Below are positions 24,507 through 28,222 of a stretch of 64,000 nucleotides of DNA, piece by piece. A program made the translations under genes and the position numbers. Every line of letters starts with the position of its first letter. Position 1 is the stretch's first letter. Source of the stretch: Fuerstiella sp. (GTDB lineage: Bacteria > Planctomycetota > Planctomycetia > Planctomycetales > Planctomycetaceae); the NCBI GenBank assembly GCA_022447225.1, contig JAKVAZ010000006.1:372001-436000 (forward strand), given 5' to 3'. A model generated the notes under the pieces. That model made no database searches. It saw nothing but the letters and a program-made list of their open reading frames with translations, and was not told where the DNA came from.

Positions 24507-25256
24507 TCACACAGCCACAGCCGCACCCAGTTCGCTGTGCAGCTGCGCCACCCATTCCCTGACGCGGTCCGGCGTCTGTTCTGCTTCGCCATCTTCATCA
24601 ATGACAAGCCCGAGGAAGTGTGATTCGTCATACATACCTTTGGATTCATCAAAGGTGTAGCCGTCGGATGGCCAGATACCGATTAGTTCCGGACCACTTT
24701 CTTTCATGCGGTCCCACAGAATACCCATTCCATCGACGAAGGTATCCGGATAACCGGCGGCATCACCCAGACCGAAGATGCCAACCTTGATTCCGCTGTA
24801 ACTTTGGGCATGAATTTCGTCCAGTTTTTCTTCCCAGTTGTACTGAATATCTCCAATGTTCCAGGTGGAGACTCCCAACAGCAGGACGTCATGCTTCAGG
24901 AGGTCTGTTACCGGAACATCAGCAATATCCTGGCAGGCACTGACATTGCATCCCTGCAGCTGTTTCTCGATAGATTCAGCGATCTCCTGGGTATTTCCCG
25001 TTTCCGTACCAAAGTAAATCCCCACATTGGGTTCAGAGCCGGCTCCGGTTACGGCCGCCTCTAATTCTGTATATTCGGTGAGATCGAAGGCCGACAACTC
25101 AACAACACCGTGTCCATCAAAGTCCGCACGTACCATGGCATTTGGTCCCAACGTCAGCAGTAATCCGCGGACACCAATCAGGTTCGTATGCTTTTCATTT
25201 CCGGCAGGCACTGTGACGAAGTGTTCACCTTCAACGGGAATAAAACTGTCAGTCAT
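24507..25256 (-). CDS. flavodoxin with a 75-residue N-terminal extension
   Basis: A 249-residue protein. Residues about 77-245 are a long-chain flavodoxin: the FMN phosphate loop GTETGNTQEIAE, the LLLGVSTWNIGDIQYNWEE segment (aromatic residue stacking on FMN), and GIFGLGDAAGYPDTFVDG. Flavodoxins shuttle electrons and often replace ferredoxin under low iron. Residues 1-75 are additional and match no family I recognise; they look like a small beta-rich domain (LIGVRGLLLTLGPNAMVRADFD). The gene is alone. Its leader contains three exact 8-bp tandem repeats (see the repeat entry), which could affect expression. Function is firm for the flavodoxin part only. Confidence 0.85.
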   Translation of the reverse strand: MTDSFIPVEGEHFVTVPAGNEKHTNLIGVRGLLLTLGPNAMVRADFDGHGVVELSAFDLTEYTELEAAVTGAGSEPNVGIYFGTETGNTQEIAESIEKQLQGCNVSACQDIADVPVTDLLKHDVLLLGVSTWNIGDIQYNWEEKLDEIHAQSYSGIKVGIFGLGDAAGYPDTFVDGMGILWDRMKESGPELIGIWPSDGYTFDESKGMYDESHFLGLVIDEDGEAEQTPDRVREWVAQLHSELGAAVAV

Positions 25257-25433: not shown

Positions 25434-26216
25434 TCAGCATTCGAATCCACAGCCTCGTAGCTGTAGCTCTACAAGTCGCTGTTGACACACGCCCTGTCGA
25501 CGACGATCCTTGGCACGGCGATACAACTGCACTAGTCGCTGCAGACAGCTGGAGCACGTCATGGCTTTAATACTTGTCATCCCCAAATCCCTCACCACCC
25601 GGTGAGCTTCTCTGCTCCGATCGGCTTTGCAGAGCAGACATGCCAGACCAATTTTGTATCGAGCATTACCAGAATCCAGTTTCAACGCCCGTCGCATCAG
25701 ACACTCAACAGTGGTAGACGGATAGCCGGACTTATCACAGTAATAACCCAGGTCGTAGCACGCCTGAGCACATTCCGGATCCGCCTGCAGAGCTTTACGA
25801 CAGGCGTGAATGGACAGGTGCGGTTGCCGGACGATGTACAGCCCCATTGCCAGCTGCAGATACTCATTCGCAGTCAGTGAATCGTTCTGCAACAACCGAA
25901 CTAAAATTCTTCTGGCCGGAGCGGTACGCCCCAGGTTGGCACAGGACAGGGCCAGCGAAATTCGACTGCTGTTTTCCAGGTAAACAATCCTGGCACCGCG
26001 CCGAAAGGCGGCCACTGCCAGAGGATAGTTGCCGGTGGAGTGGTGCACGTTTCCGTACAATTCCCAGGCTCGGCCATCACGTGGATTGCGGCGGACACAG
26101 CGCCGAAGGATACGTTTGGCAACTTTTGTATTACGACTGTGATACGCTTTTTCGGCTGCGCGATGCATACGCGCCACGTCCACTGTCAGGGTTGTCGTGT
26201 CTACAACGGCAATCAT
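25434..26216 (-). CDS. TPR-repeat protein, paralogue of the 26615-27364 product
   Basis: A 260-residue all-helical protein with several tetratricopeptide-like repeats (for example AWELYGNVHHSTGNYPLAVA and AQACYDLGYYCDKSGYPSTT). The end contains a CSSC pair near residue 228 followed by LQRLVQLYRRAKDRRRQG and a cysteine-containing tail. Its central and C-terminal parts align by eye with the TPR protein encoded upstream on the same strand. No signal peptide is seen, so it is probably a cytoplasmic scaffold or adaptor. A GGGATGG sequence lies before the start at 26216. Function unknown. Confidence 0.75.
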   Translation of the reverse strand: MIAVVDTTTLTVDVARMHRAAEKAYHSRNTKVAKRILRRCVRRNPRDGRAWELYGNVHHSTGNYPLAVAAFRRGARIVYLENSSRISLALSCANLGRTAPARRILVRLLQNDSLTANEYLQLAMGLYIVRQPHLSIHACRKALQADPECAQACYDLGYYCDKSGYPSTTVECLMRRALKLDSGNARYKIGLACLLCKADRSREAHRVVRDLGMTSIKAMTCSSCLQRLVQLYRRAKDRRRQGVCQQRLVELQLRGCGFEC

Positions 26217-26255
26217 CTAAACCATCCCGTGATTAATATTGAGCAGCACCGTGTG

Positions 26256-26534
26256 TCAGTCCCTGCTGTTATCGCGTGTTTGACGCTGTACAAAATGCTG
26301 TTCAAAACCACGGTCTTCAAACAGATGCGAATTTCTCACCGATCTGTTCGGCTTGGGCCGTTCGAAAGGACTCAGTCTGCGCGGGTGTTCTGCCTCCCGC
26401 ATTCGGCCAGCCGAGTTCAAAAACCGACGCAGGTCAAACATCAGCATTTCGATACACCAATTCACTCCGAAGATCAGTGCTGTCAAAACCACGATCAAAC
26501 CAAAAATTTTGAGATGTATGAAAATGAGGTGCAT
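26256..26534 (-). CDS. possible small membrane protein between the two TPR genes
   Basis: A 92-codon frame with a long hydrophobic N-terminal segment (residues about 3-32, including IFGLIVVLTALIFGVNWCI), then a basic and polar tail. It fits between the two TPR genes on the same strand, with gaps of 80 and 39 bases, so an operon is possible. I see no strong ribosome-binding site and no family. The hydrophobic helix and the position favour a real gene, but the arginine-rich tail could be chance sequence. Confidence 0.4.
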   Translation of the reverse strand: MHLIFIHLKIFGLIVVLTALIFGVNWCIEMLMFDLRRFLNSAGRMREAEHPRRLSPFERPKPNRSVRNSHLFEDRGFEQHFVQRQTRDNSRD

Positions 26535-26614
26535 GGTCCGAACCGGAATCCTGTTTTCAGCGGAGAAGTCCTGTCAATTCTGTCGAGTCCCTCGAACGTC
26601 TTTGTTTATCTGAT

Positions 26615-27364
26615 TCAGACAGATAATTTTTCCAGTTGCAGCATCCGCTGGCGGGCGATCACCGTACGTCGAAAGTCCTGTCTCCGTTCGTAAATACGCG
26701 TCATTTTTTCCATACAGCTGAGACACTCGATCGATTCAATCTGCTGATTGCTGAGTTCACTGATGAGTTCGTAGGCCTCCTCGTAACGTCTGTTTATGCA
26801 AAACAGCCCCGCCAGCCCCACCCGATAACAGATAACGTCAGGTGCCAGAGCAATGGCACGCCGGACCAGAGGAACAATGCGGTCCACCGATTTCCCCAGC
26901 CGTCCCAGATAGAATCCCTGGTCGTAAAAGGCCTGAGCGCAGTTTGAATCCCGTCGAGCAATCACCCGACAAAGCTGAATCGCCTCCTCAGACTGATTAA
27001 TCTGGTCCAGTCCGGTGGCGATCTGCAGCAGCAGACTGTTGGAAAGGGTGAGATTTTTACCCAGTTCGATCAATAGGTCATGCGATAGCTGCGTACGACC
27101 AATTTTTGCATACCCATGTGCCAGACAGACTTGGGCCACCGATCGCAGGGGCACCTGTGACGAAGCTCGTTCCAAACTGTTCACAGAACAGCCGTAATGT
27201 CCGGTGGCATACGTAGCCAGTCCCAGAAGTTCGTAACTTCTGGGATCCTCAGGCACCTGTTCAAAGCACTGCTCCAGCAACAGCAGGGCTTCCTGAAAGT
27301 TGGATGCCTCCAATTCATGCTGTGCAGCAGCACGCAGCGATTCCAATGGCTGTGAATCAATCAT
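26615..27364 (-). CDS. TPR-repeat protein with C-terminal CxxC
   Basis: A 249-residue helical protein with TPR-like repeats (for example SYELLGLATYATGHYGCSVN and AQAFYDQGFYLGRLGKSVD). The C-terminal segment IESIECLSCMEKMTRIYERR has the same CxxC position and layout as the paralogue downstream (25434-26216). The two genes probably arose by duplication and then diverged strongly. There is no signal peptide or membrane segment. The probable role is protein-protein interaction; the partner is unknown. The start ATG at 27364 has no strong ribosome-binding site. Confidence 0.75.
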   Translation of the reverse strand: MIDSQPLESLRAAAQHELEASNFQEALLLLEQCFEQVPEDPRSYELLGLATYATGHYGCSVNSLERASSQVPLRSVAQVCLAHGYAKIGRTQLSHDLLIELGKNLTLSNSLLLQIATGLDQINQSEEAIQLCRVIARRDSNCAQAFYDQGFYLGRLGKSVDRIVPLVRRAIALAPDVICYRVGLAGLFCINRRYEEAYELISELSNQQIESIECLSCMEKMTRIYERRQDFRRTVIARQRMLQLEKLSV

Positions 27365-28222
27365 CGTGTCTTACTTTCCGGACCAGTGACCTGCACCAAA
27401 ACCACAAATTCCGTTGTTTATGAGAACAGCACGCACAGCCGCTGCCGCGAATAGCCGCAATGTTCGATGGCTATGGTCGCTTTTCCCAGGGCCCTGCCTC
27501 GTCATCATTCTGTCCGGCCAATGAAAAACCTGGTCAATTGAACTCTGTATCGAATCACTTGAGGCAGCACTTATGGCTCGCCGTTTTCCTGATGAAACGC
27601 ACAAAGCCTGACAACACCCCACTGAGTTCCCCAACAAAACGATATGATACTGAGTCTCAGTCTCAGTTAATGTAGGCAGCTTCAGGCATGGATGCAATGC
27701 TCAAATTATTGTTTTTTTTGATGTGTCAATTTTTTGTGCTGCCGTCGAACGCACCCCGTCATCCGCCCAAGAACCGTCGACGCAGTAACGAAGCACCTCA
27801 ACCCGCGTATTCAGGGAGCGTGAAGCAGTGATGGATGACGGGGTGGCAGGTGGCAGAAAGAAATGCTGCTTAAGTGGCTGATTAACCTGCGCGGGCACTG
27901 TGGATCTCCACAAAGTTCTCCGTCGCGTTTAAGCCACTCCGGCGGGACCCACCGCAGAAGACATCTCACTCCTGTTGTTCGCACTGGCCCTGGTCTGCCT
28001 GGCAACTCAAGGTTTGTTGGCCGGGGCACCGACAATATTTCAAACTGTCGTCCGGTCCGGTTCATATCAATATCGCATGAAATCCAACGTTCGGGTTTGC
28101 GGTTTCATTCCCATGTTCTATTGGTGGTCGTCGTTCCGTAAAGAATGGACACCGGCCTGTTGTCGGTCCAACGTCAATTCCAGTCACCAGGTCACTCAAC
28201 TCACTTCCTCAAAGGCAGCTCC
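27365..28222. other. divergent intergenic region without a convincing gene
   Basis: About 860 bases between the TPR operon and the RraA-like gene. It contains a poly-T stretch near 27710, a short TCTCAG direct repeat near 27655-27666, and several short frames with unlikely composition. One frame at 27975-28226 starts with a signal-like hydrophobic stretch but soon loses protein-like character and could be a decayed gene. Promoters in both directions should lie here. Confidence 0.35.

What the first reader, a model, noticed from the sequence alone, without database searches (positions are those of the whole stretch)
25434..27364. Tandem TPR paralogues with a shared C-terminal CxxC around a possible small membrane protein
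Both TPR proteins align over most of their length, share (A)QA(C/F)YD.G.Y-type repeats, and end in I.C.SC followed by a basic helix. The conserved CxxC suggests metal or redox binding. A 92-codon frame with one strong hydrophobic helix fits between them in the same direction. The trio has no recognised function.
Basis: partly seen in the sequence, partly recalled or inferred. Interest (0 to 1): 0.52.

Follow-up and report, generated by a model that had tools for sequence, protein, structure and literature searches.

The report
Planctomycete iron-starvation TPR operon
Two related scaffold-type proteins, a tiny one-helix membrane protein and a flavodoxin sit in one gene row behind what looks like the cell's iron-starvation switch, pointing to an undescribed membrane module for coping with iron scarcity in planctomycete bacteria.

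Summary
In detail: two TPR paralogues (32% identity) flank a 92-codon one-helix frame on the minus strand; a flavodoxin follows. The CxxC is conserved (both Cys in 35 of 41 aligned family rows, the first in 41). The small frame is real: a one-helix gene follows a TPR gene in 14 of 40 loci, 13 of 14 carry a His early in the helix, and in three it is fused in frame to a PQQ-type propeller. The trio is not conserved; the pair TPR then one-helix protein recurs. The new result is regulation. A Fur-type box (TGATACTGAGTCTCA) lies 281 nt upstream of the first TPR gene. Such boxes lie upstream in 33 of 39 other TPR loci, against 2 of 20 control regions with any box. The same box precedes feoAB, bfd and an iron(III) ABC transporter. 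Neighbours elsewhere include kelch-DUF4198, PQQ propellers, ApbE-DUF2271, PepSY and flavodoxin. I read it as an iron-starvation operon in which cytosolic TPR adaptors dock on a one-helix membrane protein and link cytosolic reductant or iron handling to extracytosolic iron-acquisition proteins. Regulation is strongly supported by sequence; the mechanism is inferred. No matching description was found in the searches made.

The parts
26615..27364 (-). TPR-A, 249 aa, TPR solenoid without a signal peptide; CxxC (C214, C217) at 26714-26725
   Evidence: AlphaFold2 mean pLDDT 97; C214 just before and C217 at the start of helix 215-227
26256..26534 (-). one-helix membrane protein, 92 aa, His7 early in the helix (codon 26514-26516), basic C-terminal tail
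   Evidence: 14-row alignment A4; His in 13 of 14; coding score
25434..26216 (-). TPR-B, 260 aa; CxxC (C221, C224) at 25545-25556
   Evidence: in the tree TPR-A groups with L104, not with TPR-B
24507..25256 (-). long-chain flavodoxin (FldA type) with an unassigned N-terminal extension of about 76 residues
   Evidence: Flavodoxin_1 E 2e-20; TIGR01752 180 bits, cut-off 147; flavodoxin also follows the TPR gene in L074 and L105
27645..27665 (.). two overlapping 7-1-7 Fur-type boxes (27645-27659 and 27651-27665), 281 and 287 nt upstream of TPR-A
   Evidence: one of two perfect-match locations of the pattern in the 5.43 Mb genome, the other upstream of bfd

Best explanation
This is an iron-starvation operon, repressed by Fur when iron is plentiful. 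Shown by sequence: a Fur-type box upstream; TPR solenoid proteins with a conserved CxxC at a helix start; a one-helix membrane protein whose gene recurs directly behind TPR genes; a flavodoxin at the end of the row; and, in relatives, a recurring neighbourhood of extracytosolic genes, several of them iron-linked. Inferred: the TPR proteins are cytosolic, the one-helix protein sits N-out/C-in, its basic tail recruits the TPR protein to the inner face of the membrane, and its other side contacts extracytosolic partners (a PQQ-type propeller is fused to it in three loci). The resulting platform would join cytosolic reductant or iron handling (flavodoxin; CxxC thiols as a redox or metal site) to extracytosolic iron reduction or uptake.
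For: Box: the motif was taken from the window and then tested elsewhere. 34 of 39 other TPR loci have a site, in 33 of them upstream of the TPR start within 7 kb; 2 of 20 control regions have any site. 33 of 39 against 2 of 20 gives p 2.9e-8; with seven near-identical loci counted as one, 27 of 33, p 2.8e-7; by genus 20 of 26 against 1 of 14, p 2.5e-5. 18 of 40 loci have one within 500 nt. The box is Fur's: in the own genome the perfect locations are upstream of bfd and of TPR-A, and a one-mismatch site precedes an iron(III) ABC transporter whose binding protein matches solved iron-binding proteins (E 2e-108 to 2pt1); in five of six relatives searched, perfect sites sit by feoA-feoB, bfd/bacterioferritin, DUF1559 genes or TPR loci, one site unassigned. 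The genome has two Fur-family regulators. A decayed TPR fragment lies between the box and that ABC transporter. Neighbours against control: kelch-DUF4198 20 of 40 vs 0 of 20 (p 3.3e-5), PQQ propeller 14 of 40 vs 0 of 20 (p 0.0013). ApbE-DUF2271, PepSY and DUF4198 belong to clusters tied to iron reduction and iron limitation (PMC8238504 and PMC7190382, passages). One-helix gene in 14 of 40 loci (13 of 19 TPR genes of one clade of the tree), His in 13 of 14, in-frame fusion to a PQQ propeller in L069, L071, L097.
Against: No expression or binding data. In the window the box is 281 nt from the start codon, and no sigma-70-type promoter was found nearby. The own genome has no DUF2271 and no PepSY_TM_like_2 match, so the flavinylated reductase cannot be the obligatory partner. 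ApbE-DUF2271 (4 of 40), PepSY (4 of 40), flavodoxin (3 of 40) and Rrf2 (5 of 40), each against 0 of 20, are not significant singly, and 11 of 40 loci have none of the six classes other than DUF1559. The DUF4198 part of the kelch proteins is weak: of six proteins scanned with a DUF4198 match, two reach Pfam's cut-off. The one-helix gene was found behind only 1 of the 22 TPR genes of the other clade (L107). Six of 40 loci (L069, L070, L071, L088, L104, L111) have no box upstream within 7 kb; L104's only site is 7.2 kb downstream; three of the six are on short contigs. No full-length member was found in the two other species of the genus searched, and only 20 of 40 listed genomes of the class have one. 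No interaction was tested.
Confidence: 0.5

Rival explanations
1. TPR plus one-helix protein is a dedicated export or assembly helper for the secreted products of the same operons (propellers, kelch-DUF4198, DUF1559), under Fur only because its clients are.
For: Propellers are the commonest neighbours after DUF1559 (kelch-DUF4198 20, PQQ 14, DUF1559 24 of 40 loci); the one-helix protein is fused to a propeller in L069, L071, L097. Fold relatives include the pilus factors PilF and PilW.
Against: In the window the only partner seen downstream is a flavodoxin, a cytosolic kind of protein, with no secreted client; a flavodoxin also directly follows the TPR gene in L074 and L105. The fold list is dominated by generic TPR proteins.
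Confidence: 0.25
2. The TPR protein is an iron- or redox-sensing regulator: the CxxC binds iron, an Fe-S cluster or a disulfide and alters binding to the membrane partner or a protease, by analogy with LapB/YciM and its rubredoxin domain.
For: First Cys invariant, CxxC in 35 of 41 rows, further Cys columns in 30 and 29 of 41; TPR plus membrane helix plus Cys site resembles LapB (PMC11025326, passages). Rrf2 genes in 5 of 40 loci.
Against: Only one CxxC, no rubredoxin match; six aligned rows lack the second Cys and L111 lacks both; no client known.
Confidence: 0.2
3. Plain chance neighbourhood: TPR genes are common in planctomycetes, and the box, flavodoxin and small frame are unrelated.
For: TPR genes are abundant (17 TPR_11 matches in the own genome); the box is 281 nt away; one 14-of-19 match to a generic Fur box is expected about once per window by chance.
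Against: 33 of 39 against 2 of 20; recurrence of flavodoxin in two families and of the one-helix gene in 11 further genera.
Confidence: 0.05

Closest known systems
PepSY-like flavinylated systems (PepSY_TM + ApbE + DUF2271 + DUF4198)
   Same: The same domain set occurs beside the TPR gene in L097, L101, L109 (ApbE-DUF2271 plus PepSY) and L104 (DUF2271 part plus PepSY), and DUF4198-like domains in many loci; linked to iron reduction (PMC8238504) and enriched under iron limitation in Alteromonas (PMC7190382).
   Different: The window's genome has no DUF2271 or PepSY_TM_like_2 match. In the main text of PMC8238504 a term search for TPR, tetratricopeptide and Planctomycet gave 0 occurrences.
LapB/YciM
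   Same: Cytosolic TPR solenoid tied to a membrane helix, with a C-terminal Cys site.
   Different: LapB has its helix in the same chain, nine TPRs and a rubredoxin domain (PMC11025326, passages); here the helix is a separate gene and there is a single CxxC.
Fur regulon members feoAB, bfd, FutA/FbpA-type iron(III) ABC transporter
   Same: Same 15-bp box nearby in these genomes.
   Different: The TPR family is not one of the iron genes known to me (recall).
MamA (magnetosome TPR protein)
   Same: Fold, and a weak NCBIfam match (TPR-A 33 bits, cut-off 200).
   Different: Far below cut-off; no magnetosome context seen in the loci read.
Cytochrome b559 subunits (PsbE/PsbF)
   Same: One helix with one conserved His near its start (recalled, no call).
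   Different: No sequence test made; heme binding untested.

Membership tests
TPR superfamily | TPR helix-turn-helix repeats forming a solenoid | tested here: met
   Pfam TPR_19 and TPR_14 over cut-off in both and TPR_16 in TPR-B; model mean pLDDT 97, Z 19.7 to the OGT TPR domain
LapB/YciM | C-terminal rubredoxin domain with paired CxxC motifs (pairing recalled) | tested here: not met
   single CxxC; no rubredoxin match in Pfam; LapB NCBIfam 23.8 bits against a cut-off of 363 for TPR-B
LapB/YciM | membrane helix in the same chain | tested here: not met
   helix is in a separate gene; the TPR-A model shows only the TPR-type helices
Flavodoxin (long chain, FldA) | curated model cut-off | tested here: met
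   TIGR01752 180.2 bits, cut-off 146.75
Fur regulon | Fur box upstream, shared with known iron genes of the genome | tested here: met
Fur regulon | iron- and Fur-dependent expression | not testable with these tools
   no expression data available
PepSY-ApbE-DUF2271 reductase system | DUF2271 and PepSY genes in the window's genome | tested here: not met
   0 matches for PF10029 and PF16357 in the own genome; PF03929 and ApbE not searched there
Cytochrome b559-like one-helix heme protein | heme bound by the helix His | not testable with these tools
   only the His conservation, 13 of 14, is known

The most novel reading that the evidence does not exclude
A lineage-specific trans-envelope iron relay: the one-helix protein uses its conserved early-helix His to bind heme or iron as a dimer and passes electrons or iron between a cytosolic TPR-CxxC/flavodoxin complex and an extracytosolic propeller, a minimal ferric reductase or iron gate under Fur control.
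Probability: 0.12. Interest if true: 0.85.

Novelty: new variant of a known kind. Interest (0 to 1): 0.6.

Why it matters
How planctomycetes acquire iron is little described in the papers that the searches listed. The box gives a sequence handle on a likely Fur regulon in this class, and suggests iron-starvation roles for TPR, one-helix, kelch-DUF4198, PQQ-propeller and some DUF1559 genes whose function is unnamed. It also makes a small membrane protein that annotation easily misses directly testable.

Tried and rejected
Trio as a conserved unit: rejected. Recent tandem duplication: rejected; TPR-A groups with L104 at 98/96, TPR-B elsewhere in the same clade. LapB membership: rejected. PDB sequence and fold searches returned generic TPR proteins in the rows shown. 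Flavodoxin N-terminal extension: the model is poor (mean pLDDT 55, most of the extension under 50), no conclusion. Named organisms: the alignment was not conserved enough for the search for related loci, and the single protein gave one hit of no use, so relatives remain unnamed; 'planctomycete' rests on gene content such as DUF1559 and on my recall, not on a named record. Sigma-70 scan: no promoter. The flavodoxin of G040 (L092) and that of G039 (L091) are not beside TPR-family genes. NCBIfam did not name the substrate of the ABC transporter (all matches below cut-off); solved structures did. Literature: searches; the motif text search listed only unrelated papers in its 10 rows of 17. The frame at 27371-27697 scores as non-coding.

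Full report
What is there. On the minus strand lie TPR-A (27364-26615), a 92-codon frame with one hydrophobic helix (26534-26256), TPR-B (26216-25434) and a flavodoxin (25256-24507). TPR-A and TPR-B share 32% identity over 233 residues without a gap, E 3e-43. Both match TPR models; the small protein matches nothing in Pfam or NCBIfam at the thresholds used; the fourth protein is a long-chain flavodoxin with about 76 extra N-terminal residues. The small frame scores as coding (0.139; 4 of 197 out-of-frame or antisense stretches reach that).

Family. Searches with each TPR protein over 59 genomes of relatives and with a 12-row profile over 392 genomes of the phylum separate a full-length family from generic TPR matches. 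In one search, 20 of the 40 listed genomes of the same genus, family or class score over 150 bits; outside the class the best is 80 bits (G185). I take the 219 unlisted genomes without a match to lie outside the class, as the list is ordered by kinship. The two other species of the same genus have only weak, generic TPR matches. I fetched 39 loci of relatives; with the window that makes 40 loci. The alignment A3 has 41 TPR rows; L088 (truncated) and L111 (distant) were left out of it.

CxxC. The first Cys is present in 41 of 41 rows, both Cys in 35. Rows without the second are L082, L084, L086, L087 and one copy each in L077 and L105; L111, not aligned, lacks the motif. A Cys directly precedes the second Cys in 17 rows, and Cys columns at position 132 (30 of 41) and 237 (29 of 41) recur. 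In the AlphaFold2 model (mean pLDDT 97) the motif sits at the start of helix 215-227. The fold is an ordinary TPR superhelix, Z 19.7 to the OGT TPR domain.

One-helix protein. A frame with a strong hydrophobic helix starts within about 330 nt behind the TPR gene in 14 of 40 loci: window, L069, L070, L071, L072, L073, L075, L076, L094, L096, L097, L101, L107, L109. The search looked only downstream and used a hydropathy threshold, so misses are possible. Thirteen of 14 carry a His early in the helix (all but L075). Among 133 distinct N-terminally hydrophobic frames of the TPR and control loci, 13 pass the same test, nine of them from this set; the other four carry the His in or near the charged start of a leader-like sequence. 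In L069, L071 and L097 the helix is in frame with a PQQ-type propeller (the L097 propeller was recognised by its likeness to the other two). Basic residues follow the helix, which suggests N-out/C-in topology (positive-inside rule, recalled). In the tree, 13 of 19 TPR genes of one clade and 1 of 22 of the other have it (with the list above).

Regulation. The window's upstream region holds TGATACTGAGTCTCA at 27645 and an overlapping second box at 27651. The pattern TGAKACTSAGTMTCA with at most one mismatch has six locations in the 5.43 Mb genome, the window counted once for its two overlapping boxes; the reversed control pattern has none. The two perfect locations precede a Bfd-type [2Fe-2S] gene (Pfam Fer2_BFD) and TPR-A. 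One more precedes a decayed TPR fragment followed by an ABC transporter whose binding protein matches solved iron-binding proteins (E 2.3e-108 to 2pt1). The other three are at a DUF1559 gene, inside a gene, and between pseudopilin-like and unassigned genes, and are unexplained. In six relatives, perfect TGAGACTNAGTCTCA occurs 2 to 3 times in five genomes and not at all in G040. The 11 sites adjoin feoA-feoB (L149), bfd with bacterioferritin (L151, L155), bacterioferritin (L147), DUF1559 genes (L150, L153, L156), TPR loci (G020, G105, G339) and one neighbourhood that I could not assign (L148). Pfam or NCBIfam confirm FeoA, FeoB, the Bfd and bacterioferritin proteins, and DUF1559 in L150 and L153; L156 was read by eye.

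Control. A relaxed motif (at least 13 of 14 positions) is present in 34 of 39 relatives' TPR loci, in 33 of them upstream of the TPR start within 7 kb; 2 of 20 control regions have any site. 33 of 39 against 2 of 20 gives p 2.9e-8; by genus 20 of 26 against 1 of 14, p 2.5e-5. The control regions, 14 kb each, were placed by me at round-number coordinates in genomes that have a TPR locus. Within 7 kb every site lies upstream of the TPR start except one 52 nt inside the longest frame of L077; 18 of 40 loci have one within 500 nt; most of the others lie ahead of further genes between box and TPR gene, often DUF1559 or kelch genes. L104's only site is 7.2 kb downstream. L069, L070, L071, L088 and L111 have none; L070, L071 and L088 are on contigs under 7 kb. 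The control regions are few and a mutated-motif control was not run on the loci.

Neighbours. Against the same 20 regions, by HMMs that I built from these loci: kelch-DUF4198 20 of 40 vs 0 (p 3.3e-5), PQQ propeller 14 of 40 vs 0 (p 0.0013), DUF1559 24 of 40 vs 4 (p 0.0034); ApbE-DUF2271 4, PepSY 4, flavodoxin 3, Rrf2 5 of 40 vs 0, not significant singly. Because the HMMs come from the loci, these counts favour the loci somewhat. Seven loci (L093, L095, L099, L102, L106, L108, L110) are near-identical and inflate them; by genus the two propeller classes together cover 15 of 26. Eleven of 40 loci have none of the six classes other than DUF1559. A larger PepSY protein in L072 and PepSY-like or Rrf2-like frames read by eye in L081, L078 and L079 are not in those counts. 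Flavodoxin follows the TPR gene in the window, L074 and L105, which belong to two families, each behind a box.

Literature. PMC8238504 (passages, part of the abstract among them): PepSY-like clusters frequently encode ApbE, DUF2271 and secreted DUF4198, and iron reduction is proposed. PMC7190382 (passages): DUF4198, DUF2271 and PepSY genes are enriched under iron limitation in Alteromonas. PMC11025326 (passages): LapB architecture. PMC6851166 (passages): Gemmata iron physiology, nothing on these genes in the passages shown. Searches gave no listing that describes a planctomycete Fur box or this TPR family; I judged listings by title and start of abstract.

Mechanism. Shown by sequence: the box, the gene order, the conserved CxxC and His, the fusions. 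Inferred: Fur repression, cytosolic TPR (no signal peptide seen in the sequence), N-out/C-in helix, and TPR docking on the tail. Speculative: electron or iron passage through the CxxC and His. The absence of DUF2271 and PepSY_TM_like_2 from the own genome means the flavinylated reductase is at most an optional partner; there the flavodoxin is the only redox protein seen in the operon.

Verdict. The finding is real and its context makes it more interesting than first written: a Fur-linked iron-starvation module, confined to one class in the sample, with an undescribed one-helix component. The fold and the kind of regulon are known; the combination is, as far as the searches above show, undescribed.

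Noticed in passing
L112 5418-5726 (own genome, contig C8): Decayed third TPR-family fragment between a Fur-type box (L112 near 5170) and an iron(III) ABC transporter.
   Followed up: partly
L150, L153, L156: DUF1559 pilin-like genes, two of them (L150, L153) followed by a small lipoprotein-type frame, directly behind perfect Fur-type boxes, without a TPR gene in the 3 kb seen.
   Followed up: partly
L072 around 7480: TPR frame of G003 has an in-frame TGA near its C-terminus, aligned to a Trp of L073.
   Followed up: no
L101 7177-7476: One-helix frame whose continuation resembles the start of the propeller fusion of L097 but stops at the leader-like segment.
   Followed up: no
window 24507-25256, residues 1-76: Flavodoxin with an unassigned N-terminal extension absent from its relatives in L074, L105 and L091.
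   Followed up: partly
own genome C24:9746 and C1:458426: Fur-type sites near pseudopilin-like genes and at a DUF1559 gene, unexplained.
   Followed up: no
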